The position numbers were made by a program, and so were the translations under genes. The notes below the pieces were generated by a model that was not told where the DNA came from, did no database searches, and was given only the letters and a program-made list of their open reading frames with translations. 64,000 nucleotides of DNA from Armatimonas rosea (lineage in GTDB: Bacteria > Armatimonadota > Armatimonadia > Armatimonadales > Armatimonadaceae), in the NCBI RefSeq assembly GCF_014202505.1, contig NZ_JACHGW010000002.1, positions 620,001 to 684,000 of the forward strand, written 5' to 3'. Each line of letters begins with the position of its first letter. The first letter of the stretch is position 1. Shown in pieces: positions 41,855 through 57,363 of the stretch.

Positions 41855-43687
41855 ATGACTATGGAGCAAGAAGAGAGCAGAGGCGCACTGCGCGTTTTTG
41901 ATCAGGTTCAGGAGGAGATGCGGGAGGATGCTGCCCTCCGAGGGGGAGCCTACACCGTTCCTGTAGATCGTGCCAACGCAGCTGGGTTCACCATGTTCGA
42001 TACGCCCAATAGCGACGACAATTTGATCGAGGTACTGGTACCCAAAGATCGGATCGAGCGTCTGCCTTCTCAAGCGAGTGTGCGTATCCGGAGTCGGGAT
42101 GGGCGGGTTTATCTGGGAACGGTGGTTCGTGGCCCCTATGCCCTCCCCGATGGGCTTCGGGCGGATGCCCCGCCGGTTGTGGCGACGGCGCTACATGGCT
42201 CTGTTTTCTTACCGGAATACCATGGCCTAGTGTCTGTCGAGCTGGCAGGAGAAGAGCGAGATGGTGCACTGATGCCTCATCGGTTCCGCCCTCTGCCAAA
42301 TAGCCCGGTGGAGGCACTGGAAGACGCGGAGATCGAAGCCTTCTGGAAGACCGGGGGAAATGTGCGTCTTGGAGCTGCGTTTGGCCACGAAGATCTAGCT
42401 GTCTCGTTCGATCTGATGCGCAAAGAGGTGCTCCCACGTCACACGGCGATCCTTGGAACCACGGGTGGAGGTAAGTCCACAACCGTTGCAGGCATGGTTC
42501 ATAAGCTCCAGAACGCAGGCGCGGCGGTGATTCTCTTGGATACGGAGGGTGAGTATACAGAGATGAACCTCCCAACAGAAGACCCACGCATGGAGGCGGC
42601 TCTAGAGCGACTGGGCCGTAAGCCCGAGGGTGTCGCCGATACCCATGTTCTGTATCTGGTAGGGCGCGACGCTGCCAACCCTCTTCATCCCGATTGCCGT
42701 CCCTTCTCCCCATCATTTTCGCGGATCTCGCCCCATGCAGCGATGGAGATTTTCGATCTCAATGAAGCCCAGGAAGAGCGCTTTCAGAAAGCCGTCACCA
42801 CAACCGCGCGACTGCTCGATGAGCTTGATCTTTGGACTGAGGAAAACCGGCAGTACGCAAAAGAGGCGATGGACGAGTTCGATGAAGGTTGGCCCAAGAT
42901 GCGCCTCTCGCAAGTCTATGATGTCGCCCGCTGTATCGCGGATGTGCTGCAGAATGGCTCCGTTCAAGAAACAGCTTTGCGGTCGCCAGATTTTCATAAC
43001 CAGCGCGCCAAATTTGTGGGAATTATTCAAGAGGCCGCTAAGGACGAAACAAAACATTGGCAAAGCTGGCGCAAGGTGCAGGGACGGATTGGACGGATCG
43101 AGCGGCTTGGGCTTTTTGATAACCCGAGAGCCACTTCACTGGATGCTAGGCAGATGCTTCAGCCTGGGCGGGTGACTATCATTGACCTCTCAGATTCTGA
43201 ATCTACTGTGGTGAACAACCTCGTGATCAGTGAGCTTCTCCGCGAAGTACAGCGCCAGCAGGAAGAAGCCTACCAAGAGGCCGAGGATATGGGACGGGAG
43301 CCTACGCCTGTTGTCGTCATGATTGAAGAGGCACACGAGTTTCTCTCTAGCGCCCGAATCGCACGCATGCCGATTCTGCATCAGCAGGTAGCCCGCATCG
43401 CGAAACGAGGCCGTAAGCGCTGGCTGGGACTGGTGTTTATCACACAGCTGCCCCAGCACTTACCTGATGAGATGCTTGGGTTGGTCAATAACTACATCCT
43501 TCATAAGATCGGCGACACCGGCGTCGTGAGCCGTTTAAAGCGCACGATTGGCGGGATGGATGACTCGCTCTGGGGACGCGTTTCTCGCCTTGCACCAGGG
43601 CAGGCCATTGTGTCCCTCTCTAGCCTGACCCGCCCCCTTCTGACCGCGATAGATCCGGCTTCCTGCCGGTTGAGGATGATCCGTTGA
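41855..43687 (+). CDS. herA: HerA-type DNA translocase/helicase
   Basis: 610 residues. The N-terminal beta-barrel region (HAS-barrel-like, residues about 40-160) is followed by a FtsK/HerA ATPase core: Walker A LGTTGGGKSTT (about residue 201), VILLDTEGEYTEM, Walker B VVVMIEEAHEFLS (about 488), then ARIAKRGRKRWLGLVFITQLPQHLP with the sensor and arginine-finger region. HerA hexamers pump DNA into NurA and cooperate with Mre11-Rad50 in end resection in archaea. The TGA stop is inside TTGATAA, overlapping the TTG start of the next gene. Excellent family match. Confidence 0.92.
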   Translation: MTMEQEESRGALRVFDQVQEEMREDAALRGGAYTVPVDRANAAGFTMFDTPNSDDNLIEVLVPKDRIERLPSQASVRIRSRDGRVYLGTVVRGPYALPDGLRADAPPVVATALHGSVFLPEYHGLVSVELAGEERDGALMPHRFRPLPNSPVEALEDAEIEAFWKTGGNVRLGAAFGHEDLAVSFDLMRKEVLPRHTAILGTTGGGKSTTVAGMVHKLQNAGAAVILLDTEGEYTEMNLPTEDPRMEAALERLGRKPEGVADTHVLYLVGRDAANPLHPDCRPFSPSFSRISPHAAMEIFDLNEAQEERFQKAVTTTARLLDELDLWTEENRQYAKEAMDEFDEGWPKMRLSQVYDVARCIADVLQNGSVQETALRSPDFHNQRAKFVGIIQEAAKDETKHWQSWRKVQGRIGRIERLGLFDNPRATSLDARQMLQPGRVTIIDLSDSESTVVNNLVISELLREVQRQQEEAYQEAEDMGREPTPVVVMIEEAHEFLSSARIARMPILHQQVARIAKRGRKRWLGLVFITQLPQHLPDEMLGLVNNYILHKIGDTGVVSRLKRTIGGMDDSLWGRVSRLAPGQAIVSLSSLTRPLLTAIDPASCRLRMIR

Positions 43688-44883
43688 TAAAAGCAATTGT
43701 TGTATCTGACTGCCACCTGGGAACCTACTACGCCCGGTTTCGCCCTGAGCGCTTGGAGCAGCGACGACGCCAGCTCCAGCAGGGATTTGCTAAGACGGTT
43801 CAAGCAGCACTGGACCATGACGTAGAGCTCTTCCTCATCGCGGGAGACCTTTTTGATCGTCCCGATCCGCGCAATGCAGACCGGCACTTTGTTGCACTGC
43901 AACTTGGTCGACTAGCAGCGGCGAAGATCCCCGCAGTGGCAATTGCAGGTAACCATGACAGCCCTCGCTCCTACGGCTATGACGGCGGTATTGTTCCCTT
44001 GCAGGAGATGCACGCGCTGGGCGGTGTCCAGCTCCTCCGACAGGACGATGTTATGCAGGGCGTCCAGATAACGGTGCGAAGCGGAGCCACTGTATCGGTT
44101 CGGGGGATGAGTGCCTCGTTCCAGCACGACGATGGTAGCTGCCCACTTAGTACCCTCGCCGCTGACAAGCGAGGCGGTGCACTGGATATTGTCCTGCTCC
44201 ACTATGGTGTCGAAGGCTGGTCTGGTGAGAACTTCCAGGAACCACGTCTAGCCCTAGAAAATCTAGAGAAGCTTGATACGGATGTTATTTGTGTGGGGCA
44301 CCTCCACCGACGCAACGAGCGCCGACTCCAGAGTGGTGCACTTCTGCTGAACCCAGGCTCGACAGAGCACATTCACTTTGGTGAGGAAAAGCTTGACTGT
44401 GGCTGCTATCTTCTGACGCTCGCCACTGGGCAACCGGCGAAGGCAGAGTACCTGCGCCATACCGTTCAGCCGATGCGCACCCTAGAAGTTTCAGGCGAAA
44501 CGTTGGACGAAACCGATCCCCAGGCGGATCTGGAGAGACGAATCGCCGAGGCCACGAGCCCAGAGACTCTCTTCCGGCTGACCTTGACGGGGGAACTTCG
44601 TCAGGAGGTCTATGAGCTGGTGGATCTCAACCGTTTGCAGACGTTTGCGAGTGAGCGGTCCTTTCACTCACAGATACAAACGGATGATCTTGCGATCCGC
44701 TATCCCTTTGGGGAACTTGTTTTCTCCTCGGGGGGCTTTGAGCTTAATGAGGTACTCAGCGAGGTAGCACAGGCTATGGAACTATCCGCAACGGATGAAG
44801 AGCAGCGTGCACTCTGCCGCGAGGCGCGGGAGGCGATCCTGGCCTCGTATCAGCGACTGCGTGGAACGGGGGTGGCAGCATGA
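43684..44883 (+). CDS. Mre11/SbcD-like exonuclease subunit
   Basis: 399 residues, starting with TTG at 43684 (overlaps the HerA stop). Calcineurin-like phosphoesterase motifs in order: SDCHLG (DxH), IAGDLFDRPD (GDxxD), IAGNHDSPR (GNHD), LLHYGVEG (His) and CVGHLHRRN (GHxH). These ligate two metal ions for the DNA nuclease. A capping domain of about 150 residues follows (LTGELRQEVYELVDL). The stop overlaps the Rad50-like ATG (ATGA). Closest in layout to SbcD, Mre11 and YhaO. Confidence 0.92.
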   Translation: MIKAIVVSDCHLGTYYARFRPERLEQRRRQLQQGFAKTVQAALDHDVELFLIAGDLFDRPDPRNADRHFVALQLGRLAAAKIPAVAIAGNHDSPRSYGYDGGIVPLQEMHALGGVQLLRQDDVMQGVQITVRSGATVSVRGMSASFQHDDGSCPLSTLAADKRGGALDIVLLHYGVEGWSGENFQEPRLALENLEKLDTDVICVGHLHRRNERRLQSGALLLNPGSTEHIHFGEEKLDCGCYLLTLATGQPAKAEYLRHTVQPMRTLEVSGETLDETDPQADLERRIAEATSPETLFRLTLTGELRQEVYELVDLNRLQTFASERSFHSQIQTDDLAIRYPFGELVFSSGGFELNEVLSEVAQAMELSATDEEQRALCREAREAILASYQRLRGTGVAA

Positions 44884-47800
44884 TTCTTCTACACCGGCTA
44901 GAGGCCGAAAACTTCAAGCAGTTCGAGAAGATCGAGCTGGATTTCCCCGAGCGTGGTGCTGTGCTCATCGAGGGGCACAACGAGGCAGGTAAGTCCTCGC
45001 TCTTTGAAGCCGTTTACTTTGCACTCTACGGTAAGGGGCTGGGTGGATTAGATGTGGGAGACCTCAAGCGCTACCACGCAGATCAGATGAAGGTCACCCT
45101 CAGATTCTCTGTGGAAGGACGTCAATTCACCGTGGAGCGTCGCCTTGCATCCAGCCAAAAAGTGACTCTCACGTGCCCTGTGGGTTTAGATGGTCAGGTA
45201 GAGGTTATCAAGACATTGACTCCTGCCAATAAGCGCATCATTGATGAACTGGGTATGAGTGACGCGTCGCTTCTCAATACCTGCTTCGTCGAGCAGAAAC
45301 GCCTAGAGCGGATTGAGTCTGCAAAGCCCGAAGAGCGTAAGCAAACCATCAATGAGCTCCTAAACTTGAAGTCACTCTCGATGCTGGAGTCGGAGTTCAA
45401 GGTAGTACGGGCAGATAAAGACGCTGTTCTAAGGGCTAAGGAGCGGGTTGATATCGCGAATTTGGATGGGCTACTTTCCGCACTTCAGGAAAAAGAGCAG
45501 CGGATGAAGACTTGCTGCCAGCTTTCTCGTTGGCAAGAAGCGGATCGTGAACACTCCCGGATACAACTGCGCCAAGGAGAAATTGCGACGGAGCAAGACA
45601 AGATAAAAACGCGCCTCAGAGAAATCAAAGCAAAATTCGATACTATCAATCGGCTTGAGGCGAGAGCCCAGGCTATTGCGAGACAACTGGCACCTCTGGC
45701 ACGCGCTTGGCAGGATGGTGAGCATCGAATTGCTGAGGCCGAGGCCGCCGTTACTGCCGCGAAGAACGCCGCGCTACAAGCCACGGAGCTTAAGGAAAAC
45801 CTGAAGCAGGCAGAAATGCATCACAAACAGCTTGTCGAGGCGCTGGAGTTTGCAAAAGCCCATCGCGCTTGGGAGGACTATCACCAAGCGCAGAACCAGC
45901 AACAGGAAGCGCTGACCAAGATTGAGTCCCTGAAGCAAAAGGTTGAAGAGGCTGAGCGGGCGGAGGGGCTCGCACAGGTAGCACTGGCAGGAGCGGAGCA
46001 GAAACTGACTCTGCGAACAGCTCTCCAAGATTGGGCTAATGCCTCTGAAAACCTCACGAAGCTCCAGAGTATCGAGATGGATCGTGCCCGCTTCGTTCAG
46101 GAACAAGAAGCCACACGAACCCAGCGTATGCAGGAACTGGAAGCGAATCATACTCAGCTCACTCAGCAGCTAGAGACTGTGCGTACTAAAAATATTCAGG
46201 AGCTTCGCGAGTTGGAGGCGGCTCACGTCACGGCAATTCGGGAGTGGGAAGCGACGGTAGCTAAAACAGGTCAAGAGCTACTTGCTGCACAAGAGCGCAT
46301 GAAGAAGGGGCAGACTTCTCTACCCATAATGTCACTGGTTGGGGTACCGAGCTGGAGTGTTATGGGGCTCGGACTAGCACTCACGCTTGGTGGTTTGAAA
46401 GTAGTCCCACTTCTCTTGATTGGTCTAGTTCTTCTTCTTGTCGGAGTGGGCTTGGCCTTTCAGAAGATCAGTACAGCCCGGAAAGCCTCCGAGGGACAAG
46501 CGATACAGCTATCGCAAGAAGTGGGGCGGCTTGAGCAAGTACAGAAAGCCGCAAAAGACCAGCGAACCGCCCTTGAGCAACAGCAAGCCCAGCACCTCAA
46601 GATGGCGCGGGAACAACACCGTATATTGGAGCAAGGGCTTCTTCAGCAGCAAGCGCAAGTGCTCGAGCAGAAGCGCCAGGCGGAACAGAAAGCGGCGGGC
46701 CATCATGGCAGTGGCCAGGTCACGGCGCTTCCGGAGGCACAGAAGCAAGAAAAGGAATGCAGAACCACACTAGAACACCTGATTGGGGATGCCCCTTTCC
46801 CCACGGATACTGATGCAGCGCGTACCAGTGCTGAGGCTATTACCCATGCGCTTGAGCCCATTCGTACTAGGGCACGGGAAGCCCAAGAAGAGAGTAAGCG
46901 CCTGAATCACAGCTTGATTGCCACACAGTCTGGAGTCAAGCAAGCTCCTATACCAACTGTGCCACAACCAACGGATACAGAGCGCCAGCTCTTGGCTCAG
47001 GTACAAGCGGGGCTTTCACAAGCTAAATTGCCCTCGGAGCCAAGTTCTCTTGCCAGTGTGATTGGCCAGCTCAAACAGAAAATGCAAGGGCAAGAGGAGC
47101 TTGCTGCGACACTTCCCACTTGCGAACAAGCTCACCAAGCAGCAGTGCTGGCGCGGGATCAGCGGCGGGATGCTTTTCATGAGGCTTGCCAGAATCTACT
47201 GACGGAAAATGTCGTGATTCCCAGCGAGGTGGTTCAGGTACTGGAGGTTTTCTTGCCTGAACAAGAACAAGCAGTTCGCATGGCACTTCAGGTATTCGAT
47301 CCCTCCGCGCTTCGGATTGAGCAAGACCAGCATAGGGAGGCGGAGGCGAGTCTACAACAGGAGCAGGGGCGACTTCGGCAACAGGAGAGTGATGTGACGA
47401 AGCAACGCGAGGCGGCGCAGGAGGCGCTTGCGACTGATTCAGCTGGAGTGACAGCGCTTCTCCAGAGTCACCCTGAGGTTACCTCTCGTACCAGCGATTT
47501 CTGGCAAGCGGAGGCTCTTGGCGCAGGTGAGAATGTACTGGAGAACCGGAGTCGTCGAAAGGCACTAGCGGATCGTCTCGGACTGACAGATGAGCTCTTG
47601 GAGAGTACGGTAGAGTCACTGGCGCTGCAAACCGCCCAGCGAGCTTTGCGACGTAAAGAGCTCGCTAGTAAGATCGTTGAGGAGTCCCGCAAGCAGATAC
47701 TAGACCGCGTGATGCCCTCGACTGAGATCTGGGTGAAGAAATTACTGCCTCTCTTGACAAACCACCGCTACCGGGACATTAAGTGGAATTCCGAGGAAAA

Positions 47801-48137
47801 CAAAGTCTCTGTACTAGATTCCCGTAAGGGAGAATACGTCGAGAAGAGAGTTTTTTCTGGAGGTGCACGTGACCAGATATCATTGGCATTGAGACTTGCA
47901 TTTGCTCTTGCTACTCTGCCAGGAGAAAGCGCCACCCGTCCTGGCTGGTTATTCCTAGATGAGCCACTTTCCTCATTCGACGAAGCGCGTACACTATCAT
48001 TGATCGACTTGTTAACGAAAGGCTTGATACATAAACAGTTCCAACAGATCTTTCTAGTTTCTCATAGTAAGTCCTTTGATCCGGACAAGTTCCCCCATCG
48101 TATCACGATGGAAGCGGGACGGATTGTATCGAGTTAA
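44880..48137 (+). CDS. Rad50/SbcC-like SMC ATPase with hydrophobic hairpin at the coiled-coil apex
   Basis: 1085 residues. Walker A EGHNEAGKSSLFEAVYF (about residue 35), Q-loop region CFVEQKRLERIES, long coiled coils (180-480 and 535-960), signature FSGGARDQISLALRLAFAL (about 990) and Walker B GWLFLDEPLSSFDEART. The usual CxxC zinc hook is absent. In its place residues about 480-530 form two hydrophobic stretches (MSLVGVPSWSVMGLGLALTL and VVPLLLIGLVLLLVGVGLAF) separated by a short turn, enough to cross a membrane twice. YhaN-type proteins are known to have such apex segments. The gene overlaps the Mre11 stop. ATPase and motifs strongly supported. Confidence 0.9.
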   Translation: MILLHRLEAENFKQFEKIELDFPERGAVLIEGHNEAGKSSLFEAVYFALYGKGLGGLDVGDLKRYHADQMKVTLRFSVEGRQFTVERRLASSQKVTLTCPVGLDGQVEVIKTLTPANKRIIDELGMSDASLLNTCFVEQKRLERIESAKPEERKQTINELLNLKSLSMLESEFKVVRADKDAVLRAKERVDIANLDGLLSALQEKEQRMKTCCQLSRWQEADREHSRIQLRQGEIATEQDKIKTRLREIKAKFDTINRLEARAQAIARQLAPLARAWQDGEHRIAEAEAAVTAAKNAALQATELKENLKQAEMHHKQLVEALEFAKAHRAWEDYHQAQNQQQEALTKIESLKQKVEEAERAEGLAQVALAGAEQKLTLRTALQDWANASENLTKLQSIEMDRARFVQEQEATRTQRMQELEANHTQLTQQLETVRTKNIQELRELEAAHVTAIREWEATVAKTGQELLAAQERMKKGQTSLPIMSLVGVPSWSVMGLGLALTLGGLKVVPLLLIGLVLLLVGVGLAFQKISTARKASEGQAIQLSQEVGRLEQVQKAAKDQRTALEQQQAQHLKMAREQHRILEQGLLQQQAQVLEQKRQAEQKAAGHHGSGQVTALPEAQKQEKECRTTLEHLIGDAPFPTDTDAARTSAEAITHALEPIRTRAREAQEESKRLNHSLIATQSGVKQAPIPTVPQPTDTERQLLAQVQAGLSQAKLPSEPSSLASVIGQLKQKMQGQEELAATLPTCEQAHQAAVLARDQRRDAFHEACQNLLTENVVIPSEVVQVLEVFLPEQEQAVRMALQVFDPSALRIEQDQHREAEASLQQEQGRLRQQESDVTKQREAAQEALATDSAGVTALLQSHPEVTSRTSDFWQAEALGAGENVLENRSRRKALADRLGLTDELLESTVESLALQTAQRALRRKELASKIVEESRKQILDRVMPSTEIWVKKLLPLLTNHRYRDIKWNSEENKVSVLDSRKGEYVEKRVFSGGARDQISLALRLAFALATLPGESATRPGWLFLDEPLSSFDEARTLSLIDLLTKGLIHKQFQQIFLVSHSKSFDPDKFPHRITMEAGRIVSS

Positions 48138-48161: not shown

Positions 48162-48803
48162 TTGAAAAACAAAGAAATGCTTCTCCTGAGTTTTCTTATG
48201 CTTAGTGGGTGTAATCAGTCGCGCCCTCTACCAACTGTACAGAAGCCAGAAGACCCTGTCTTGAATGTGGTTGCGATAGACCGCAGTGGTAGCACAGCGA
48301 ACATGCGTGAGACTCAGCTGCTGGCGTTAAAATCTGCTTTCGCCAGAGCTGCCGATTGGGGTGAAGAAGTTGCTATCTACATGGTTGACAGAGAGATTAC
48401 CTGCTTACTTCCAGCCGAAAAGATCAATGACGACTCTCGAATCAAAAAACGCGTTTTTGATCAGTTGAAGGAATTAGATGCTTTACGTTCTCAAGGTACA
48501 CGTCCTTATAACTTATGGAAAGAAATGGAGAAGCTATATGCAGGTAAACAAAAGAGTGTTCGTATTCTTTATCTGACGGATGGAGATAACGATTGGAAAG
48601 ATGATGAAAGGCTAATAAGTAGAGCTTTGCTAAGTATTTCTAAGAATTCAAAAATAACAATTGCAATACTTGGATTGAATAAGGATACAGAAGAGGGACT
48701 TAAATCCCAGTTTTCCTGTTTTGGAGGTCGAGTGACATTATCAGTAGGTAAAGAAAAATCTACCATTGCTGCCGGGATCACTAAGTGGAGAGAGAAAAAA
48801 TAA
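48162..48803 (+). CDS. VWA-domain lipoprotein
   Basis: 213 residues from a TTG at 48162 (ATAGGG 9 bases upstream; an in-frame GTG at 48138 adds 8 basic residues). Lipobox FLMLSGC, so membrane-anchored on the outer face of the cytoplasmic membrane. The VWA metal site is visible as AIDRSGST (DxSxS), with the Thr/Asp pair in YLTDGDNDW. Typical VWA strands are NVVAIDRS and ILYLTDG. VWA proteins bind partners through a metal. The stop overlaps the start of the next gene (TAATG). AT-rich relative to the rad50 gene. Confidence 0.75.
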   Translation: MKNKEMLLLSFLMLSGCNQSRPLPTVQKPEDPVLNVVAIDRSGSTANMRETQLLALKSAFARAADWGEEVAIYMVDREITCLLPAEKINDDSRIKKRVFDQLKELDALRSQGTRPYNLWKEMEKLYAGKQKSVRILYLTDGDNDWKDDERLISRALLSISKNSKITIAILGLNKDTEEGLKSQFSCFGGRVTLSVGKEKSTIAAGITKWREKK

Positions 48804-51751
48804 TGGTAAATGTTGCAACAGTACCTCTCACGGAGGCAGAGTCTCCCGTTATTGAGACCGAAGCGATTGAAGGAGAGTTGATTGATGCTAGTGGTGAGGT
48901 TCCCATCCCTGATGACCTTCTTAGTGATGAGGAAGGGAGCCCCCGGTATTCACTACCAAATGAGCTAGTCAAGGTGCAGTATGACATGGTGCCGGTGGCC
49001 ACGGTACCACAAACGGTTGGGCTGAGCGAGCGGATTGTCATTTCTGCTCCCTCGTCCCGGCAGTCGAATCCCTACGACCTCGGTGCCTATGAAGAAGCGG
49101 TTCAGGATCTGAATACGCGGTTTGCGTTGCGTGTTGCCCACGTCCGTGAGGCACGTTTCCGGCTCGTAGCAGCGGGAGAGCGCCATCAGCGGCTATTTGC
49201 CCTTAAGGAGCTCGAACGTCAGAACTTGAACTGGCGTAACCAGGTCAATAATACTCGTCTGGATGAAGAGCTCGCAAGTTTGCGTAAATGGTGGGAAGAA
49301 ACACGTAAGAGCTATAATGATGAAATTAAGCGCATCGAGGAAGACCGCATTACATACCGCATGGAGCGGCACTCTGAGATCGAGGCGGCCCGTAGTGTTT
49401 ACTGGGAGGTGCAAGAGCGGTGTGCCAAAGAGCGTGATATTCGGGACCAAGAACGCCGTCAGTTTGAGAAAGGGCAAGAACGGGACTACCAAAAACATGT
49501 TGATGAGCTCACAAAGCAACGTGATAAACAGCTCTTTGAGGAGCAGCAGGAGGCACGTGAGCGTGAGAAGGCCCTTCAAGAAGAGGTCTTAAAAACACGT
49601 GAAGCGCGGCGTGTGGCTGCACTGCAAGCTGCCGAGGAAGCAGAAGCCAGTGCCGAAGCTGCCGAGCTAGCGAAACAACAAGTTGAGGCTGAGGTTATTG
49701 CTCGGTTCCAGGAACAGCTAACTGCGGCGTCCGAAAAGTACCAGAAAATCTTTGAGGAAGCGGTCACGCGGGTCGAGATGATGGAAGCAGAGCTCCGCGA
49801 GGCTGCCGATAAGATCGAGGCCGAGCTACTTTCTGAGCGAAGTCAGCGCGAAGACTGGTTGCACTCCATAGCGAAAGAGACCGCTGAAGAAGCGGCTCGA
49901 CAAAATGACACAGTTCATGCTGCGCGTCGGACTTTCAATACCACTGTCAGCTCGCAGGCAAAGTTGCCTGGCTTGTCTTCACTGAACAAAGAAGGTGCTG
50001 GTGATATCGTTACCGCACAGACGAACACTGCACATCTTTCTTTTTCAAATCGTCACCATGGATTTAAAAAATATCTTCATAATGTCGGGGATTTTGTTGC
50101 ACATATTGCTCTTGGTAGTATTTTTGGACTAAGCTTGGGACTGCTGACAAAATTTGCTAGGTTGGATGCAGAAAGTATACAGAAATTTGGATATAATTCG
50201 GTCTATGTTTCTTGTGTATTTGGAATATTTATCTTCTTTTTGATTGGTCGTCTTGCATTGAAAGCGAGTACATTTGCCACTGAAGAGATGGATGCATCCA
50301 GAAAATCCGACGAAAAAAATCGAGGTGTGATTGCAGTTGTCTTAGCTTATCTGGTTCTAGTTGGCGTTGTTATCCTAGAAGCTAGTGTCGAGCGCTTTGG
50401 TTTAGGTGAGATCATCCGCAAACAGATGGAATTGAATATGGAATCCGGAGTTCCTAATAAGTATCAGGAGTTCTCTCTCTGGGTCATAGCCTTTATTGTC
50501 TCTGCTCCATTTATGATCTACCATGCCTATGAAGGGGCGATGGAGACGCGCTACCGACTGGGAGAAAAGCAGCATCAGAGCTTACTCGCTGTGCAGCGTT
50601 ATGAGCTGGAAAAAGAAGAGGAGCGACTCAATGAAGAGCGACTCCTAAAGGCTCAGGTTGCCAAGGGTACGCTTGATGCAGAGGAGGCACAGTTGCGGCT
50701 GCTTGGGGAAGGACTTCACCATCCACGACGTGAAGCAGAGCGGCGCATTGAGGAAATCAATGCACTACTGACGACACATCCCGATATTGTCCGGTGGCAG
50801 GAATTTGTTGCGAGACGTGATGCACATTTGTCAACCGATCCACTTCTGATGGAAGCAAAGGCTCAGTGGGATCGTGTAAAGCAAAGCCTCGACTCTGATC
50901 CACGTCTCAAGAGTGCGCGGCTTCTTGCGGAAGAAGCGCGGTTTGCGGCAAATGATGCCCATCGCAAAGCAGAGAGCGCCGAATCAGAGCTGGCCTTTGC
51001 ACTGGAAGACGCGGCTCGACAGCTCATCACTAGGACAGGTTCCAGTGTTGCGGAAGCACTCGGTCAAAAATCGGGCGAGCTTGTCTCAGGAGCGCTGAAC
51101 CTGGCATCGCAGGCGGCCCGTGGTGGTTTGGGCGGGGCTACCTCACCATTTGGTATCGCAGCAACTATAGCCGAGAAAGCTCTTATTCCATCCAATACGG
51201 CGGGTACAGAAGTTGAAACCTGGGAAGAGACGATGGCACGCGAACGGTGGAATAGTTTACGTGGGGCCATTGCAAACGACCCTAAGATCCGTTTCTATGC
51301 AGCACGTGTCTCCTCGCTCCAGAGCATGATCCGAAGTCTGGATACCCAGTATGGTAAGCGGAGAAAGCAACTCATGGATCAGAAGCGCGCGATTGAAGTT
51401 CGCTTGCTTGAAGATGAACATTCCAACCGAATGAGTGAGGCGATGCGCTCGGCCCTCCACGAGGCAGAGCTTGATGTGCAGTCAGCACAATTGAATTTTA
51501 ATGAAGAGATTGATCGGTTGATGAAGCTTCATGCCACACCGTCGTTTCTCCGCTGGATCACCGCCTATTTACAGAATAGGGACAGCCAGTCAAAGAGGCA
51601 GATGGAAGCATCTAGTAGAGCCAAGCCTTTATTGCCAAGTTCTTATCGGACGAGTGAGAATAATGCTAGGGAGATTCCTCCCAAAGGGGGTTCCACAGAT
51701 GTATCTGTACAGGATCGCCCAAACGAAGCCACCATGGTAGGGAGCCGATGA
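48803..51751 (+). CDS. 982-residue membrane coiled-coil protein
   Basis: From the ATG at 48803 (GGAGAGA upstream). Acidic N-terminus, a long coiled coil (about residues 90-385, charged heptads such as EEDRITYRMERHSEIEAAR), then four membrane helices at about 432-585 (FVAHIALGSIFGLSLGLL, VYVSCVFGIFIFFLIG, GVIAVVLAYLVLVGVVIL, FSLWVIAFIVSAPFMIY), then a second coiled coil of about 350 residues with a Pro/Ser tail. Not recognised. By position and shape it may hold the Rad50-like complex at the membrane or sense envelope change. Last gene of the operon. Confidence 0.7.
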   Translation: MVNVATVPLTEAESPVIETEAIEGELIDASGEVPIPDDLLSDEEGSPRYSLPNELVKVQYDMVPVATVPQTVGLSERIVISAPSSRQSNPYDLGAYEEAVQDLNTRFALRVAHVREARFRLVAAGERHQRLFALKELERQNLNWRNQVNNTRLDEELASLRKWWEETRKSYNDEIKRIEEDRITYRMERHSEIEAARSVYWEVQERCAKERDIRDQERRQFEKGQERDYQKHVDELTKQRDKQLFEEQQEAREREKALQEEVLKTREARRVAALQAAEEAEASAEAAELAKQQVEAEVIARFQEQLTAASEKYQKIFEEAVTRVEMMEAELREAADKIEAELLSERSQREDWLHSIAKETAEEAARQNDTVHAARRTFNTTVSSQAKLPGLSSLNKEGAGDIVTAQTNTAHLSFSNRHHGFKKYLHNVGDFVAHIALGSIFGLSLGLLTKFARLDAESIQKFGYNSVYVSCVFGIFIFFLIGRLALKASTFATEEMDASRKSDEKNRGVIAVVLAYLVLVGVVILEASVERFGLGEIIRKQMELNMESGVPNKYQEFSLWVIAFIVSAPFMIYHAYEGAMETRYRLGEKQHQSLLAVQRYELEKEEERLNEERLLKAQVAKGTLDAEEAQLRLLGEGLHHPRREAERRIEEINALLTTHPDIVRWQEFVARRDAHLSTDPLLMEAKAQWDRVKQSLDSDPRLKSARLLAEEARFAANDAHRKAESAESELAFALEDAARQLITRTGSSVAEALGQKSGELVSGALNLASQAARGGLGGATSPFGIAATIAEKALIPSNTAGTEVETWEETMARERWNSLRGAIANDPKIRFYAARVSSLQSMIRSLDTQYGKRRKQLMDQKRAIEVRLLEDEHSNRMSEAMRSALHEAELDVQSAQLNFNEEIDRLMKLHATPSFLRWITAYLQNRDSQSKRQMEASSRAKPLLPSSYRTSENNAREIPPKGGSTDVSVQDRPNEATMVGSR

Positions 51752-51809: not shown

Positions 51810-52553
51810 TTAGTGTAGGCGTAGGATTGGCTCGACAGAATCGTAGCCCTCATGCTCTACCTGTGCTTCCAAGCGCTCTACCTCGGCTTGGAGCACTGTC
51901 GTATCTTCTCCATTGGAGCGGGCTGCGTGGAGCTTGAGCTTTGTGAGCGAAAGACACGGCAGCGGGATAAAGCCTTGATGCGTGTGCCAGGCCACACTGG
52001 GCTCGTTGGCGGGATGGTAGGTGGTGAGAAGCTCTGTGGCCCCTTCGGCGAGGAGCTGAGGAATCACGTAGCGCAGAAGATAGGTCGCCACGCCCTGGTG
52101 CTGATAGCGTGGGCGCACGGCGAGGGTATCGAGAAGGAAACCACTGGCGGTTTTCTTGACCAGTAGCAGAGCCGCTACAGAGCGCGGATGCCGCTTGGGG
52201 CGCAGGATTCGTGAAGTGGGATGGGCACGGGCGATATCTTGGGTGAGCCAGCGCCGGATCTCACGCTCCAGAATCTCTCCGACATAATCACAGAGGTCAG
52301 GCGTATCACGAAATGCCGCGCGGTAGAGCTGGGCCAGTGCCTCTGGTGTGGCATTGGCGAGGGGGGCAAGCACCAGCCCGGCGGGGGGCGTGCTACTTGG
52401 CTCGGGAATGTTGTGGAGTGGTAAGGCACCAACTACTGCTAGCTCACGGGGGCGGATGTGCACGGTGCCATCCCAGTACTCGTACTTCCAGGCGTAGTGA
52501 CGGTGTAGAGCATGAAACTCGTCGATGGGCATCGGAATGTGCTGGGTTCTCAT
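51810..52553 (-). CDS. GNAT-family N-acetyltransferase
   Basis: 247 residues. The acetyl-CoA site is visible in LDTLAVRPRYQHQGVATYLLRYVIP (RxxGxA-like, QHQGVA). Early part FHALHRHYAWKYEYWDGTVHIRP is unassigned. The last part is charged. It overlaps the start region of the PD-(D/E)XK gene by 4 bases and ends the minus-strand defence run. Function unclear: it may act as a tRNA- or protein-acetylating toxin, but no antitoxin is visible. Confidence 0.8.
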   Translation of the reverse strand: MRTQHIPMPIDEFHALHRHYAWKYEYWDGTVHIRPRELAVVGALPLHNIPEPSSTPPAGLVLAPLANATPEALAQLYRAAFRDTPDLCDYVGEILEREIRRWLTQDIARAHPTSRILRPKRHPRSVAALLLVKKTASGFLLDTLAVRPRYQHQGVATYLLRYVIPQLLAEGATELLTTYHPANEPSVAWHTHQGFIPLPCLSLTKLKLHAARSNGEDTTVLQAEVERLEAQVEHEGYDSVEPILRLH

Positions 52554-53680
52554 CGTATGCTTTGAATGGCTTGGTTCAAAAGAGGCAAATCTCCCGTGAG
52601 GAAGGACTCCCAGCTGGCGTGGAGCTCGTCGAGGATCTGCTCTAGTGTCTTCTTGGTATAGGAGCGCGGCGCGATAAGCTCGCGTGAGTAGAGGATAGTC
52701 CAGGCAGCATTGCGTGCGTTTGGTTTAACGGTGAAGGGAGCTCCTTGTGCCTCGGCGAGCGCGATGAGCCGCGCACGATCTGCGGGATCGGTCCCGGCAC
52801 TGATCTGAAGACTAAGACGCAACGACTGAGGCTGGTTGGAGAACCAGAACAGCAGAACACGCCCCTCCGCAGACCACTTACAGGGCCGCCTGCGAGGCAG
52901 AAAGTCATCCCACACAACAGGAACAAAACTCACTTGTGACCGGGCGGCGGGCTTTGCATAGTCGAGAACAAAGATAGAGTTCGCCTTCACAAGCGATTCC
53001 AGCTCTTCACGAATTCGAGTCTGGGGGTCAGCGCGGCGGGCGTAGAGATAGTCGAGGGCGCGGTGGTGGCGCTGGTAGAGCTGGATGCAGAGCGCATCGA
53101 GCTCGTTCTCGTGGAGTACCTGCCGTCGGAGAGTGGCGGTGTAGTGAGTCAGGAGAGTCAATACTTCAGGCTGAAGACTAGGGAGATTCGTTGCCCCCTC
53201 AAGTAGTGTGATGATAGTACTGTACTCGGCGAGCAGGTAGTCAGGGTCTGAGGCGGGTGCTCCTAGTGGTGAGAGGAAGACAAAGACCACCTTCCAGCCC
53301 GCGAAGTGGCGTGCGGCCAGCTCCTTGTAGCGCTTGAGCTGATCGCCGTGCTCTCCTGCCCCGATCTTGTTCTCGATGACCACTGCTAGCCGGGCACGAG
53401 GACAACGGATGAGGATATCTATCCGCTCCCATTCGGTGCGCACTTCTGTATCGGAGAGGTCGGCTGGTTCAGTGAGGCCAAGGTGATGGAGGAAGCCGCG
53501 TAGGAAATGCTCGCCCAGTCCATGTGTCTGGTGCGGGTCCAGCAGGAAGGCGAGGGCTTTGGAGTGGATAACCTCCTGCCGAGCTATCCCCATGGCCTCG
53601 AAGAGATTGAATTGCTGGAGTGCCTGCTCTAGTGCAGCAAGATCAGGGTCGTAGTTTAGGGCTTCTAGCTCAGAGATCAT
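52550..53680 (-). CDS. PD-(D/E)XK nuclease superfamily protein
   Basis: 376 residues. The catalytic core is clear: WERIDILIRCPRARLAVVIENKIGAGEHGDQLKRY (Asp in IDI, then E-N-K, with Gln-Leu-x-x-Tyr after) near residues 88-120, as in the PD-(D/E)XK nuclease family found in defence islands. Early part FNLFEAMGIARQEVIHSKALAFLLDPHQTHG is family-typical. The remainder is helical. Likely acts on invading DNA alone or as a domain of a complex with its neighbours. It ends in the GNAT start (overlap). Confidence 0.85.
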   Translation of the reverse strand: MISELEALNYDPDLAALEQALQQFNLFEAMGIARQEVIHSKALAFLLDPHQTHGLGEHFLRGFLHHLGLTEPADLSDTEVRTEWERIDILIRCPRARLAVVIENKIGAGEHGDQLKRYKELAARHFAGWKVVFVFLSPLGAPASDPDYLLAEYSTIITLLEGATNLPSLQPEVLTLLTHYTATLRRQVLHENELDALCIQLYQRHHRALDYLYARRADPQTRIREELESLVKANSIFVLDYAKPAARSQVSFVPVVWDDFLPRRRPCKWSAEGRVLLFWFSNQPQSLRLSLQISAGTDPADRARLIALAEAQGAPFTVKPNARNAAWTILYSRELIAPRSYTKKTLEQILDELHASWESFLTGDLPLLNQAIQSIR

Positions 53681-53691
53681 GGTGTGAGTTC

Positions 53692-55497
53692 TTAGTATTT
53701 CGTCGTAGCGACCAGAGACATCGTGGCGGTTACGATCTGATCTGGCATCGTTGTATCCTCATGCCCATCTGTCGGGCGGGGCCGCAGTGCGACGTTCCAG
53801 AGGGATGGGGCTAATCCACATTCCTCAAGGACACTCTGTACTGTCGAGCCGTCTTTGATGAGTAGGTTGAAGATTTCCACGTATCCATCGGAGCGGTGCA
53901 TCTCAACGGTGAAGGGGAAGAACTCTGCTGAGAGCATTTCTTGGATGGGGAGTTTATCGGAGGTGATCATCTCCAATATCTGGGGATCGATGATACAAAG
54001 CTCGATTTCTTCTAGTGCTCCCCCGGGGCTGGTTCGTTCAAACTGGCGAATGCCCCGCAAAGTCTGCGCGAAGGGGTGGATGGGATGCCAGAGATTCCTC
54101 GCGGAGAACCCGGAAGCGATGGAGCCAAGAAAGACCCGTGAAAATCCCTGCTGGGCAATCACAGCAAGTCCAGCCGCCACCGCCTCGGGCACCACGGCTA
54201 AGTCACGATAATCACTGTCCCCTTTAGGGCGGCGCGCTGCGATGGCAAAGAGTGGCTCGTTATTGTACTGAAATATATTGGCATTGGTTGTGGAGTCGAG
54301 TGGTTTCCAGAGACTGGACTTGTTTACTCGCCCCGTTGCGGCAAGGTACCCGGTTCCAAAGTTCCCTAGAACCGGTCGGTTATTGCGACGCCCAGCACTG
54401 ACGACAACCGCCGCTCCCTCAGGAATACTAACAGGTGTCGTTCGATGGGAGAGCAAGACTCTTAAGTTGTGCGGGGAAAGAGTGTAGGTTCGAGAGGTGA
54501 GCGCCGTTCTGCCTTGGGGCAACCCTGATACTGGGGAATAGGAGACTTTCAACTCAGCTCGGAGCTGGCTTAAAAAATCGGGAATGTCATCGTGGCTCGT
54601 GGTGAAGAGTGGCGTGATTCCAAGGCGTGTCTGTAAGAACCGCACATCGAAGCGCCCACTGTCGCGCTCAGACGCAGGCAGGAGTGCAAAGTGTGGAAAA
54701 GCACTCGGGCCATGGTTGTAGATGATCTCGCTAAACAGGTTCAGCAAGTAGTCTTCGAGAATCCCTGAGCCAACAAAGAAGAAGGAGCGGCGGCGATAGA
54801 CTTCCGCGAAGGCTCGGCGAAAGTGTGTGTCTCCGTTAATTGCTTGCTGGTACTGCTGGTGCCCAACGACCACCTGGCTTTCCAACTGCAACCGCCGATC
54901 TGGGTCAGGAATGATCTCTTCTGGCGGATTGTGCTGCCCTCCCAGGAACCCCTGAAGTGCCCAGTAAAGAGGCGGTGCGATTCGGTCCAGGGAGCGTAGA
55001 ACCCTGTGACAGTCCTCTAGGCCACGGCCCACGATCTCGGGCATCTGGCGCTCATGCGAGCGGACAATATCGGATGCTACCTGTGAGCGCTCCTTGCAGG
55101 CTGCCCAGTAGAGGTCATCGTAGTTGGTGGTGAGCACCAGCGGCCAGTATAGACCGTTTGTGAGTGCCTTCATCTGTGCGGGAATCGCTTGGCTCCCGAC
55201 AGGGTGATTGTGTATCCCCTCCCGATAGCGCCGCGCTTTTTCCTCGGGTGGTAGAGCGTGCATCTTGTGGACAACGGTGTCGGCGATTCGGTAGAGGGCG
55301 GCGCTCTCCAGAGTTACTGTCGCGTCCGTAAGCTTTCTGGCATCATCGTCCATCCCAGCCTGGTATGCAAGTGTAGCTAGGAACTCGTTCCAGCTCGTGC
55401 ATGTGGTGCGGCTCATGCCGGAGCCGATGAACGGAACCAGGAGGCCACGCTGGTAGAGCGTGACGAGGTTAGGAATCAGGCTATTATCGAGGGGCAT
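53692..55497 (-). CDS. SIR2-domain protein with extra C-terminal modules
   Basis: 601 residues. SIR2-like NAD-binding opening LLVPFIGSGMSRTTC (about residue 20), LVLTTNYDDLYW (about 118) and FFFVGSGILEDYLLNLFSEII (about 245). From residue about 340 a second module contains VVVSAGRRNNRPVLGNFGTGYLAA and VAAGLAVIAQQGFSRVFLGSIASGFSARNLWHPI, which I would compare with macro-type ADP-ribose binders. The last 80 residues (EIFNLLIKDGSTVQSVLEECG) look like a ubiquitin-like beta-grasp. SIR2 defence proteins deplete NAD after infection. The two C-terminal assignments are inference. Confidence 0.8.
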   Translation of the reverse strand: MPLDNSLIPNLVTLYQRGLLVPFIGSGMSRTTCTSWNEFLATLAYQAGMDDDARKLTDATVTLESAALYRIADTVVHKMHALPPEEKARRYREGIHNHPVGSQAIPAQMKALTNGLYWPLVLTTNYDDLYWAACKERSQVASDIVRSHERQMPEIVGRGLEDCHRVLRSLDRIAPPLYWALQGFLGGQHNPPEEIIPDPDRRLQLESQVVVGHQQYQQAINGDTHFRRAFAEVYRRRSFFFVGSGILEDYLLNLFSEIIYNHGPSAFPHFALLPASERDSGRFDVRFLQTRLGITPLFTTSHDDIPDFLSQLRAELKVSYSPVSGLPQGRTALTSRTYTLSPHNLRVLLSHRTTPVSIPEGAAVVVSAGRRNNRPVLGNFGTGYLAATGRVNKSSLWKPLDSTTNANIFQYNNEPLFAIAARRPKGDSDYRDLAVVPEAVAAGLAVIAQQGFSRVFLGSIASGFSARNLWHPIHPFAQTLRGIRQFERTSPGGALEEIELCIIDPQILEMITSDKLPIQEMLSAEFFPFTVEMHRSDGYVEIFNLLIKDGSTVQSVLEECGLAPSLWNVALRPRPTDGHEDTTMPDQIVTATMSLVATTKY

Positions 55498-55521
55498 TGG
55501 GAGGGGTACTACCTTTCAGCT

Positions 55522-56223
55522 CTATGGATTCAGAGAGACGCTCTCGAATGAGAACTGGACTTGATAGGCGATCAGCGTGAGGTTCGAGATCGCACTAGCG
55601 GCGTAGCGTGTGCCTTCGGGGAAGTGTCTAGCCACCAGAATCCCACGGGGCGGCTTGCCGTCGGTCTTGGCATACCAGCCGAGATACCGGGCGATCTGGC
55701 CAACGGCAGCGTCTTTGGCATCGCCTACTTTCACTTCGATCACGACCCGCTCCCCACTAGCATCTTCGGCTAGGATATCAATGCGGCCCACATCGGTCGT
55801 CACCTGCCGACCGATGAACTTCAGCCCCGGCTCCAGAGCATCGAGATGATGAATGAGGTGGTCTTCAATATCACGTTCCAAGCTAATGGAGGTTTCGAAG
55901 TACTGAACGGCGGATGGTGCCAGCGTCAGCTCATCCCCTTCCCCATCACCCTCAGATTCTGGCTCCCACTCGTTTGGCCCATGCAGTTCCTCGGAGTAGA
56001 GTTCCATGCTGCCATCACTGTAGCGGTAGAGGAACTTTGGTGTAGAGGCGTGGTGAATGTAGGCTTTGGGGTTGTTGACCGCGCAGGCATAGAGGTGCGC
56101 CGTGAGAGTACCTGGTCTCCAGCGACCTGGATACTCCGTGTTAATATGGCGTGTCACTGCCTCCGCAGTCACTTTGCCACCTTGGGCTTCTACATAGGCA
56201 CGGATCGCCTGAGACATTGTCAT
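55522..56223 (-). CDS. NucS-like endonuclease domain protein
   Basis: 233 residues. N-terminal about 80 residues look like a winged helix (SQAIRAYVEAQGGKVTAEAVTRHI, PGTLTAHLYACAVNNP). The C-terminal half has the NucS-type PD-(D/E)XK core: IGRQVTTDVGRIDILAEDASGERVVIEVKVGDAKDAAVGQIARYLGWYA (Asp in RIDIL, E-V-K, Gln later). NucS enzymes cut mismatches or branched DNA. Here a restriction role is suggested by position between an HNH gene and the SIR2 gene, 24 bases from the latter. Confidence 0.8.
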   Translation of the reverse strand: MTMSQAIRAYVEAQGGKVTAEAVTRHINTEYPGRWRPGTLTAHLYACAVNNPKAYIHHASTPKFLYRYSDGSMELYSEELHGPNEWEPESEGDGEGDELTLAPSAVQYFETSISLERDIEDHLIHHLDALEPGLKFIGRQVTTDVGRIDILAEDASGERVVIEVKVGDAKDAAVGQIARYLGWYAKTDGKPPRGILVARHFPEGTRYAASAISNLTLIAYQVQFSFESVSLNP

Positions 56224-56245
56224 AATATATCTAAATACTCCAAAT

Positions 56246-57349
56246 TTATGTTTGATTATACGAGGCAGGAATCGATATATGTGACGGTATGAATCCTTGT
56301 AATTCCACAGAATTACTCAATAAGTAATCTATATAGCCAGAATACAAAAAAGAATACGGCCATTTCCCTTTATTATTATCATGATCTGTTTTTATATATT
56401 GTATATGAGGAAGTAAATCTGAAAAATCTAAATGTTTATTCGCTCGTAATTGCTTGTTGATTTCATGTTTTATTCTGCCAACTACATGCTCCATAACGAT
56501 ATATCTCCATTGATCTTCAATTTCAAAAAGATACATGAAGTTTTTGGTGCGGTTTGAATGCCCTCCATTGCTTTCGATGACTTCTATATTGAGTACACCG
56601 TTCTGATTGCGACTGAATTTAACTTTGGCAACATTAGACACGGATTCATGGAACGGCAAGAAACTATCAGGTAGCCCATTTCCATACTTTATAGGATGTT
56701 TAGTACCTTTCAATGTACTGTTACAATGATGACAAGCAGGTAAAAAATTTTCAGGATGAATCGAGAGAAATGGAAAGGTGGCTTTTGGAAAAAAATGATC
56801 TAATGTGTGTGCTGAATGATTATTCTTCGGAGGAGGCATAAGTTGATCACATACAGGACAGACTAGTAGGTCTCTATTATGAATCGAAAAATCGTATACA
56901 AAGTTTGATCGATTGGATACCTTCAGGGGATTTACATTGAAACCTGGCTTGCCGTCAAAGACATCTGAGTATAGATAAACCATTAATTCTTGAATCGTTC
57001 TGTCAAACCATGGACTATCTTTCGTTACAACAAATTTAAATATAAAACTCGGATCATTTATATGTTTCCTAAATTTAATATCATGACAAAAATCGTCAAT
57101 AATAGAATATATGCGTGGTGATCTTGGCATGCACTGAGCTGCCTCTACGGAACTACTTAACAATTTCCGAAGTTTTGGTTTATTCCATATCCATTTTTTT
57201 GTATCATCGCCAAAAAAATTGGCTAGTTGATTTTCATCAAGTGGAAATATTGTAATTGGATCAACGATAAATTTCAGTATTTTTTTCTGAAGCTTTAACG
57301 TATACATCACATTTTTATGATTAATAGGGCGATAAATTTCATGTAGCAA
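56246..57349 (-). CDS. HNH endonuclease, Septu PtuB-like
   Basis: 367 residues. HNH core: CPVCDQLMPPP ... HTLDHFFPKATFPFLSIHPENFLPACHHCNSTLKG (two zinc CxxC pairs, catalytic His in LDHFFP, Asn in PENFLPACHHC), about residues 165-215. The ends are helical and unassigned. The gene is much more AT-rich than its neighbours. With the ATPase gene ending 14 bases upstream it has the composition of Septu (PtuA ATPase, PtuB HNH). An alternative start is the ATG at 57307 (MYTLK). Confidence 0.8.
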   Translation of the reverse strand: MLHEIYRPINHKNVMYTLKLQKKILKFIVDPITIFPLDENQLANFFGDDTKKWIWNKPKLRKLLSSSVEAAQCMPRSPRIYSIIDDFCHDIKFRKHINDPSFIFKFVVTKDSPWFDRTIQELMVYLYSDVFDGKPGFNVNPLKVSNRSNFVYDFSIHNRDLLVCPVCDQLMPPPKNNHSAHTLDHFFPKATFPFLSIHPENFLPACHHCNSTLKGTKHPIKYGNGLPDSFLPFHESVSNVAKVKFSRNQNGVLNIEVIESNGGHSNRTKNFMYLFEIEDQWRYIVMEHVVGRIKHEINKQLRANKHLDFSDLLPHIQYIKTDHDNNKGKWPYSFLYSGYIDYLLSNSVELQGFIPSHISIPASYNQT

Positions 57350-57363
57350 CTGTGGGGATCCTT

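What the first reader, a model, noticed from the sequence alone, without database searches (positions are those of the whole stretch)
48162..51751. VWA lipoprotein paired with a giant membrane coiled-coil protein
The two genes overlap (TAATG) and follow the Rad50-like gene directly. Both are membrane-bound, one on the outer face. This is a possible trans-envelope link between an outer signal and the DNA machine. The 982-residue protein has coiled coils on both sides of four membrane helices and resembles no family I know.
Basis: partly seen in the sequence, partly recalled or inferred. Interest (0 to 1): 0.68.

Follow-up and report, generated by a model that had tools for sequence, protein, structure and literature searches.

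The report
Membrane sensor-like gene pair in defence islands
Two overlapping genes make an outward-facing ligand-binding protein and a large membrane protein with long arms inside the cell; the pair is found across one little-studied bacterial phylum, and one branch of it keeps turning up on mobile DNA and beside systems that handle foreign DNA or RNA, so it may carry a signal from the cell envelope to such systems.

Summary
A VWA lipoprotein gene (48162-48803) overlaps by one base (TAATG) a 982-aa four-TM protein with long helical arms (48803-51751; "TMCC"), 24 bp after a Rad50-like gene. TMCC matches no Pfam or PADLOC family and only one NCBIfam model, far below its cut-off. The pair is a genuine two-gene module: 44 of 291 genomes searched in the phylum have TMCC, and 46 of 48 loci read have a VWA gene beside it.
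The proposed tie to the HerA/Rad50 machine is not general: two other genomes have HerA genes of this set without the pair beside them, and the pair mostly lives elsewhere. But the tree splits in two. One clade is a quiet chromosomal VWA-TMCC-C3 operon. In the other, 14 of 23 loci sit on mobile elements or beside type III CRISPR/CARF, HerA-Rad50 or helicase-nuclease genes. The window's copy lies on a 36.8-kb island in tRNA-Glu with exact 48-bp ends, loaded with restriction and nuclease genes.
Best reading: a portable trans-membrane sensor/scaffold recruited to foreign-nucleic-acid loci, Zorya-like in logic but not a Zorya member. Function untested.

The parts
48162..48803 (+). VWA lipoprotein, 213 aa from TTG 48162 (or 221 aa from GTG 48138); lipobox LSGC, Cys codon 48210-48212; MIDAS residues D40, S42, S44, T113, D140
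   Evidence: (D40, T113, D140 invariant in 25 aligned sequences)
48803..51751 (+). TMCC: 982-aa protein with four TM segments flanked by long predicted helices
   Evidence: no Pfam or PADLOC match, one sub-cut-off NCBIfam match
49079..49954 (+). TMCC N-terminal helical arm (residues 93-384), cytoplasmic by inference
   Evidence: low-confidence model; heptad test not significant
50093..50527 (+). TMCC four-TM core (residues 431-575); conserved G438, F441, S444, G446, G474, F478, G482, E526, V529, E530, G533, W560, P569 among the first seven aligned
   Evidence: net charge of loops fits N-in/C-in
50558..51616 (+). TMCC C-terminal helical arm (residues 586-938)
   Evidence: low-confidence model
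44880..48137 (+). Rad50/SbcC-like ATPase, 1085 aa, ends 24 bp before the VWA start at 48162
   Evidence: Pfam SMC_N E 8.7e-11, SbcC_Walker_B; spacing
43684..44883 (+). Mre11/SbcD-like phosphoesterase, overlaps both neighbours by 4 bp
   Evidence: Pfam Metallophos E 2.1e-14; solved SbcD/Mre11 relatives
41855..43687 (+). HerA-like ATPase
   Evidence: Pfam DUF87 E 2.9e-22; solved HerA E 3.4e-24
40656..41834 (+). 392-aa protein in the slot where archaeal operons have NurA; NurA identity not shown
   Evidence: no NurA match in Pfam or in the PDB by profile
39848..40603 (+). IrrE/M78-like protein, part of the same gene set in L072
   Evidence: Pfam Peptidase_M78 E 0.0012, below cut-off; relative in L072
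31122..31196 (+). tRNA-Glu (TTC), insertion site of the island
   Evidence: ARAGORN
31150..31197 (+). left end of the island: 48-nt tRNA-Glu 3' sequence, repeated exactly at genome C2:687928-687975 (window coordinate 67928, outside the window)
   Evidence: no intact tRNA at the right copy
31306..32319 (+). tyrosine integrase at the left end of the island
   Evidence: Pfam Phage_integrase E 2.1e-35
51810..63826 (-). other cargo of the island: GNAT, PDDEXK_4, SIR2_2, NucS-like, unassigned 367 aa, AAA_21, HsdS-like with pentapeptides, HsdM
   Evidence: HsdM

Best explanation
The two genes form one trans-inner-membrane unit. The VWA lipoprotein sits on the outer face of the inner membrane (or in the outer membrane) and binds a partner or envelope ligand through its metal site; the four-TM protein crosses the membrane with both long helical arms in the cytoplasm and turns an outside event into a change in, or a docking platform for, cytoplasmic proteins. 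One clade is a resident chromosomal operon with a third membrane protein (C3); the other clade is portable and has repeatedly been taken up by mobile elements and by loci that recognise or degrade foreign nucleic acid (type III CRISPR/CARF, HerA-Mre11-Rad50, a helicase-nuclease). In the window it is cargo of a 36.8-kb tRNA-Glu island and is probably co-transcribed with the HerA-Mre11-Rad50 genes, to which it may pass an infection or DNA-entry signal. Shown: module, architecture, metal-site conservation, clade split, contexts, island ends. Inferred: topology, complex formation, signalling, defence role, coupling to HerA-Rad50.
For: Pairing in 46 of 48 loci. D40, T113 and D140 invariant in 25 of 25 aligned VWA sequences; the VWA is anchored outside by a lipobox or, in most C3-clade members, an N-terminal hydrophobic segment. 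TM loop net charges fit N-in/C-in. Tree split 97/98 between the C3 clade (25 rows) and the accessory clade (23 rows). Foreign-DNA or mobile contexts in 14 of 23 against 1 of 25, Fisher p 2.2e-5. Type III loci confirmed by family models: G014 (Cas1, Cas2, Csx7-like and TIGR03986 RAMPs, a weak Cas10 match, CRISPR array), G036 (Cmr2, Cmr3, Cmr4, Csx14-like, TIGR02221, arrays 233 bp after TMCC), G045 (weak Cmr2, RAMPs, TIGR03986), G158 (TIGR02221 directly downstream); the tree needs at least 4 separate changes for CRISPR adjacency. Seven loci beside a TrwB/HerA-like ATPase, Replic_Relax and zinc-ribbon gene. Island ends. Closest relative of the window's TMCC is the CARF-associated one of G158 (support 99/96, 72).
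Against: No functional test exists. 33 of 48 loci have no recognised foreign-DNA neighbour, and the HerA-Rad50 juxtaposition is seen once. The TrwB-type element has the pair within 10 kb in only 8 of 62 places (0 of 20 others that I read), and TIGR02221 genes occur in 40 of 291 genomes but only two places lie beside the pair, so the pair is not a core part of either. Fisher's test ignores relatedness, the context labels are mine, and G014, G036 and G045 are long branches. TMCC has no CARF or enzyme domain detected, so how it would act is unknown. Coiled coils were not clearly shown.
Confidence: 0.45

Rival explanations
1. Independent cargo: the pair is one of several unrelated modules that piled up on a defence-rich tRNA-Glu island and has no working link to HerA-Mre11-Rad50.
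For: HerA genes of this set occur without the pair beside them in G024 and G146; no close relative of the window's HerA lies at any other pair locus searched; the VWA gene (GC 40.8%) differs from Rad50 (53.5%) in composition, although the TM part of TMCC is equally AT-rich while its arms are not.
Against: Same strand, 24-bp spacing after Rad50 and a one-base overlap inside the pair look like one operon, and promoter-like or terminator-like patterns there are no more frequent than in shuffles. All 3 genomes with the HerA gene also carry a VWA-TMCC pair somewhere against 44 of 291 overall.
Confidence: 0.4
2. Resident envelope-maintenance or stress module: the original and main job is in the cell envelope (VWA-TMCC-C3), and the mobile copies are stray paralogues with the same job.
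For: 22 of 48 loci have the three-membrane-protein operon; the neighbours tested there are housekeeping genes; C3 has a weak DUF2135-like domain (32) and hydrophobic segments seen by eye in its sequence.
Against: The portable clade is separate (97/98) and enriched beside mobile or foreign-nucleic-acid genes.
Confidence: 0.25
3. DNA-transfer platform: TMCC anchors a HerA/VirD4-type DNA pump to the membrane and the VWA protein faces the recipient or the envelope; in the window HerA would be the pump.
For: Seven loci lie beside a TrwB/HerA-like ATPase plus Replic_Relax; in three of them the ATPase match lies 578-664 bp from the TM-core match.
Against: The same ATPase-Replic_Relax set lacks TMCC within about 6 kb in 20 of 20 other places read, and only 8 of 62 places have it within 10 kb (106, 113); CRISPR-side loci need no pump.
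Confidence: 0.1
4. Type III CRISPR membrane effector: TMCC is a membrane-disrupting effector switched on by the neighbouring CARF proteins, like Cam1 or Csx23.
For: Four independent type III or CARF neighbourhoods; membrane effectors of type III systems are known (PMC11229360, passages read).
Against: No CARF, SAVED or other nucleotide-sensing match in TMCC or VWA; most TIGR02221 genes of the phylum have no pair beside them; 44 of 48 loci have no CRISPR neighbour that I recognised.
Confidence: 0.1

Closest known systems
Zorya ZorA-ZorB (PMC11890865; abstract and passages read)
   Same: Inner-membrane pair: outside domain on one protein, long cytoplasmic rod on the other, found with a nuclease effector; proposed to sense phage entry at the envelope
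   Different: ZorA-ZorB resembles MotAB ion-driven motors and ZorB has a peptidoglycan-binding domain; here a VWA lipoprotein and a four-TM protein without any Pfam match
TerY-type VWA modules of CoCoNuT and Ter systems (PMC11090510; passages read)
   Same: VWA domain with MIDAS, next to FtsK/HerA-type ATPases, CARF proteins and coiled-coil proteins
   Different: TerY-P is a VWA-phosphatase-kinase triad; here the VWA is of the exported, lipid- or TM-anchored type, with no phosphatase-kinase triad (G014 has a lone kinase nearby)
Type III CRISPR membrane effectors Cam1, Csx23, Cam2, Cam3 (PMC11229360; passages read)
   Same: TM proteins encoded in or next to type III loci
   Different: No CARF or other sensor domain detected in TMCC; no VWA partner is described in that paper's main text (0 occurrences of Willebrand or VWA)
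Archaeal HerA-NurA-Mre11-Rad50 resection operon (PMC2288612, PMC5715905; search listing and abstract starts only)
   Same: HerA, Mre11 and Rad50 side by side in the window and in G024
   Different: 392-aa protein in the NurA slot without detectable NurA similarity; VWA-TMCC appended; carried on an island

Membership tests
VWA domain | VWA fold | tested here: met
   profile against PDB best E 8.5e-5; model against PDB best Foldseek E 3.1e-8
VWA domain | MIDAS metal site DxSxS...T...D | tested here: met
   D40, S42, S44, T113, D140 present; D40, T113, D140 invariant in 25 of 25; metal binding itself not testable here
Bacterial lipoprotein | signal peptide with lipobox and Cys | tested here: met
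   LSGC at residues 14-17 after a hydrophobic stretch; pattern match only, no signal-peptide program run
Zorya | MotA/ExbB-type ZorA | tested here: not met
   no Pfam match for TMCC; no PADLOC match
Zorya | peptidoglycan-binding ZorB | tested here: not met
   partner is a VWA domain
Type III CRISPR ancillary effector | regular location in type III loci | tested here: inconclusive
   4 of 48 loci; absent beside most TIGR02221 genes
Type III CRISPR ancillary effector | cyclic-nucleotide sensor domain | tested here: not met
   no CARF/SAVED-type match in TMCC or VWA
HerA-NurA-Mre11-Rad50 operon | HerA, Mre11 and Rad50 homologues adjacent | tested here: met
   spacing
HerA-NurA-Mre11-Rad50 operon | NurA nuclease | tested here: not met
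   no Pfam or PDB-profile match of the 392-aa protein
Integrative genomic island | integrase next to a tRNA and flanking direct repeats | tested here: met
   tRNA-Glu (116), integrase, exact 48-bp repeat 36.8 kb apart
TerY-P triad | VWA, PP2C-like phosphatase and kinase together | tested here: not met
   no phosphatase 2C or kinase match among the window proteins scanned between 27378 and 63826

The most novel reading that the evidence does not exclude
VWA-TMCC is a previously undescribed, portable envelope sensor of immunity: one trans-membrane front end that different back ends (type III CRISPR/CARF, HerA-Mre11-Rad50, helicase-nucleases, element-borne ATPases) have independently plugged into, so that DNA entry or envelope damage is reported to the cytoplasmic machine before nucleic acid is recognised.
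Probability: 0.2. Interest if true: 0.88.

Novelty: new variant of a known kind. Interest (0 to 1): 0.62.

Why it matters
Few systems are known that couple an event at the cell envelope to nucleic-acid defence; Zorya is the best-worked example I know. A second, unrelated protein pair that recurs beside type III CRISPR, HerA-Rad50 and mobile-element genes would suggest that envelope sensing is a reusable front end of immunity, and it gives a concrete gene pair, with an obvious metal-site mutant, to test. It also gives boundaries to a conserved membrane family without a Pfam or PADLOC model in a poorly studied phylum.

Tried and rejected
Searches that found nothing: TMCC in IMG/VR viral contigs, PLSDB plasmids and phage records (TM core only). 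The genome-contig scan with patterns from window plus G158 found only G158's contig, CAIXIX010000418.1. HerA and the 392-aa protein found nothing in plasmids.

Structure: the TMCC model (mean pLDDT 48.4, pTM 0.23) is too poor for a fold search, so none was run on it. A simple heptad-periodicity test gave no clear signal. Profile A5 has no convincing PDB relative (best E 0.28).

Rejected: NurA for the 392-aa protein. TMCC hit L074 in G104, in a 647-aa ORF that reads like an ABC-F ATPase (named by eye), dropped from all counts. L119 was labelled 'none' when the tree was built and moved to the mobile group; the first Fisher value, 13 of 23 against 1 of 25, p 7e-5, became 14 of 23, p 2.2e-5. Four weakest places (G144, G205, G236, G237) were not fetched, so 48 of 52 places were read. 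The idea that the pair belongs to the TrwB-Replic_Relax element was checked in reverse and weakened. The Poisson estimates of chance CRISPR adjacency (p 0.0018, 0.019, 0.066 for assumed means 0.5, 1, 1.5) rest on my assumed means and are not used as proof.

Literature: no paper in the held library with 'von Willebrand' + 'type III CRISPR' + membrane + ancillary, Armatimonadetes + CRISPR + von Willebrand, replication-relaxation + von Willebrand factor, or von Willebrand factor + lipoprotein + antiphage defense + coiled-coil; 'VWA domain' + 'type III CRISPR' gave 3 papers, of which I read passages of the CoCoNuT paper only. These searches do not prove that the pair is unpublished.
Full report
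WHAT IS THERE. The window is G000:C2:620001-684000 of a 6.3-Mb genome; the phylum is not named by the tools, but the nearest full-length relative is an 'uncultured Chthonomonas' contig, so I take it to be Armatimonadota (inference). The Rad50-like ORF ends at 48137; the VWA ORF runs to 48803 from GTG 48138 or the in-frame TTG 48162; TMCC starts with the ATG that shares base 48803 with the VWA stop, TAATG, and ends at 51751. HerA/Mre11 and Mre11/Rad50 overlap by 4 bp and Rad50-VWA are 24 bp apart. Promoter-like and terminator-like patterns between 47800 and 52000 are about as frequent as in shuffles (3 against 4.2, and 4 against 3.3). One operon is likely but not shown.

THE TWO PROTEINS. The VWA protein has a lipobox (LSGC) and the full MIDAS set; D40, T113 and D140 are invariant in the 25 aligned sequences. 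Its single-sequence Pfam score is below cut-off (E 0.065), but a family profile finds solved VWA domains (best E 8.5e-5), and the model (pLDDT 69.5, pTM 0.71) matches VWA structures first. TMCC has four hydrophobic segments; the first-round relatives show the same four-segment pattern, with segments under or over threshold in a few, such as G158 (L008) and L073. The charge balance (K+R minus D+E) over 25 proteins is N-flank +1.8, loop 1 -4.7, loop 2 +4.4, loop 3 -3.8, C-flank +5.6 per 100 residues, which fits both ends inside. Long helices flank the core, but the model is poor, and heptads were not clearly above shuffles, so 'helical arms' is safer than 'coiled coils'. TMCC has no match in Pfam or PADLOC; its only NCBIfam match is far below cut-off.

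HOW WIDESPREAD. The window's protein alone found 7 of 201 genomes, the seven-sequence profile A1 24 of 291 (one of them, G104, judged a false match), and the TM-core profile A5 44 of 291, at 52 places. I read 48 of the 52 places. A VWA gene lies beside TMCC in 46 of 48: 27 of 28 first-round loci (L009 is cut by its contig end) and 19 of 20 second-round loci (none found in L127). It comes first in 44 and second in two (L073, L117). So the pair is one module. No relatives were found in viral contigs, plasmids or phage records. Other phyla could not be searched by profile, so how far the family extends outside this phylum is open.

TWO CLADES. A tree of 48 TM cores splits with 97/98 support. One clade of 25 holds all 22 loci with a third gene, C3 (369-521 aa, with an N-terminal hydrophobic stretch, a weak DUF2135-like domain and further hydrophobic segments), plus G084, G024 and G045. 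Neighbours tested there are housekeeping genes such as RuvB, QueF, EngA-like GTPase, NADH dehydrogenase subunits and purine synthesis (10 neighbours of 6 or more kinds; not all loci were scanned). In most members of this clade the VWA protein has an N-terminal hydrophobic anchor instead of a lipobox. The other clade of 23 includes the window.

CONTEXTS OF THE SECOND CLADE. (a) Seven loci (L060, L116, L118, L119, L120, L122, L123) lie beside a TrwB/HerA-like ATPase, a Replic_Relax protein and a zinc-ribbon membrane protein; in five of the seven an integrase or serine recombinase was confirmed nearby (L060; L116, L118, L120, L123). (b) Two loci (L073, L117) have TMCC first, with ArdC-type anti-restriction genes, one also with a serine recombinase. 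(c) Three are beside type III CRISPR or CARF genes. In G014: VWA-TMCC-kinase-(FHA/RT/primase)-Cas1-Cas2-array-CARF-like-Cas10-like-RAMPs, all genes on one strand (the CARF label for the 376-aa protein is from a motif I recall, no model matched; the Cas10-like protein is a weak match, E 0.00028). In G036: Cmr2-Cmr3-Cmr4, a Csx14-like gene and TIGR02221 lie upstream and arrays begin 233 bp after TMCC. In G158: TIGR02221 is directly downstream and a 120-aa CARF-like fragment upstream (motif only). A fourth type III neighbour, G045 (Cmr2-like weak, RAMPs, TIGR03986), falls in the C3 clade on a very long branch. CRISPR adjacency needs at least four separate changes on the tree. (d) G125 has a PD-(D/E)XK plus AAA_11/12 helicase-nuclease directly downstream. 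(e) The window has HerA-Mre11-Rad50. (f) Nine have nothing recognised. That is 14 of 23 against 1 of 25 in the C3 clade (Fisher p 2.2e-5); rows are related and labels are mine, so this is a guide, not a proof.

THE WINDOW'S COPY IS ISLAND CARGO. A tyrosine integrase at 31306 follows tRNA-Glu at 31122-31196. The last 48 bases (31150-31197) recur exactly at genome C2:687928-687975, with no intact tRNA there. The 36.8-kb stretch between has lower GC than its flanks (GC3 0.27-0.65 for island genes against 0.72-0.85 for five genes outside it). Besides the HerA set and the pair it carries PDDEXK_4, SIR2_2, NucS-like, AAA_21, HsdS-like and HsdM genes and, beyond the window, HsdR-like and Fic-like ORFs (named from motifs I recall, not scanned). 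It is an integrated, defence-rich island.

THE LINK TO HERA-RAD50. HerA (E <= 1e-40) and the 392-aa gene occur in 3 of 291 genomes. G024 has the whole M78-392-HerA-Mre11-Rad50 set without the pair; G146 has 392-HerA without Mre11, Rad50 or the pair in the stretch read. Both have VWA-TMCC on another contig. The seven-gene arrangement is therefore seen once. The pair and the HerA set are separable; a working link here is possible but unproven.

HOW IT MIGHT WORK. Shown: an exported-type VWA with a conserved metal site is made with a four-TM protein with long arms. Inferred: the VWA binds the outside loops of TMCC or an envelope ligand; binding changes the packing of the four helices; the arms recruit or activate a cytoplasmic machine. 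Zorya works on such a plan (membrane complex, outside sensor domain, long cytoplasmic rod, nuclease effector; PMC11890865, abstract and passages read), but TMCC and VWA show no match to its families. Cytoplasmic-type VWA modules next to FtsK/HerA ATPases and CARF proteins are described for CoCoNuTs (PMC11090510, passages read; that they are cytoplasmic is my reading); here the VWA is of the exported type.

AGAINST OVERREADING. Most TIGR02221 genes (40 of 291 genomes have one; two places lie beside the pair) and most TrwB-type loci (8 of 62 with TMCC within 10 kb; 0 of 20 others read) lack the pair, so it is neither a core CRISPR component nor a core part of those elements. Recurrent company in defence islands can come from island biology alone. 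I give 0.45 to the sensor/scaffold reading and 0.4 to no working link with HerA-Rad50 in this window; these two overlap and are not exclusive.

VERDICT. Observation confirmed; interpretation partly supported; a new membrane module whose portable branch is associated with mobile and foreign-nucleic-acid loci. Interest 0.62.

Noticed in passing
window 31150-67975 (right end outside the window): 36.8-kb island in tRNA-Glu with exact 48-bp ends, tyrosine integrase and a stack of restriction, nuclease, SIR2 and AAA genes; HsdR-like and Fic-like ORFs beyond the window.
   Followed up: yes
window 40656-41834; L072:14533-15723; L071:7931-9073: 392-aa protein, 53-54% identical in three genomes, always before HerA, with no NurA or other family match: a possible new HerA partner.
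   Followed up: partly
L128:2619-5570 (G014): 983-aa ORF with FHA, reverse transcriptase and TOTE-type primase domains just before Cas1; its start codon was not checked.
   Followed up: no
L060, L116, L118, L119, L120, L122, L123, L130 and 20 loci: TrwB/HerA-like ATPase plus Replic_Relax plus (in most) zinc-ribbon membrane protein: a widespread mobile module in this phylum (ATPase at 62 places in 41 of 291 genomes).
   Followed up: partly
C3 gene, e.g. L063:7120-8328, L047:8317-9456: Unnamed membrane protein family with a weak DUF2135-like domain that follows TMCC in 22 loci.
   Followed up: partly
window 56246-57349 and 32341-33576: Two genes of 33-34% GC in a 57% GC window, the first unassigned, the second with a weak sigma-70 region 4 match.
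   Followed up: no
L012, L013, L010: The long-form pair of three genomes of one genus is convergent with a sigma-factor-like gene of 254 aa (named by eye).
   Followed up: no
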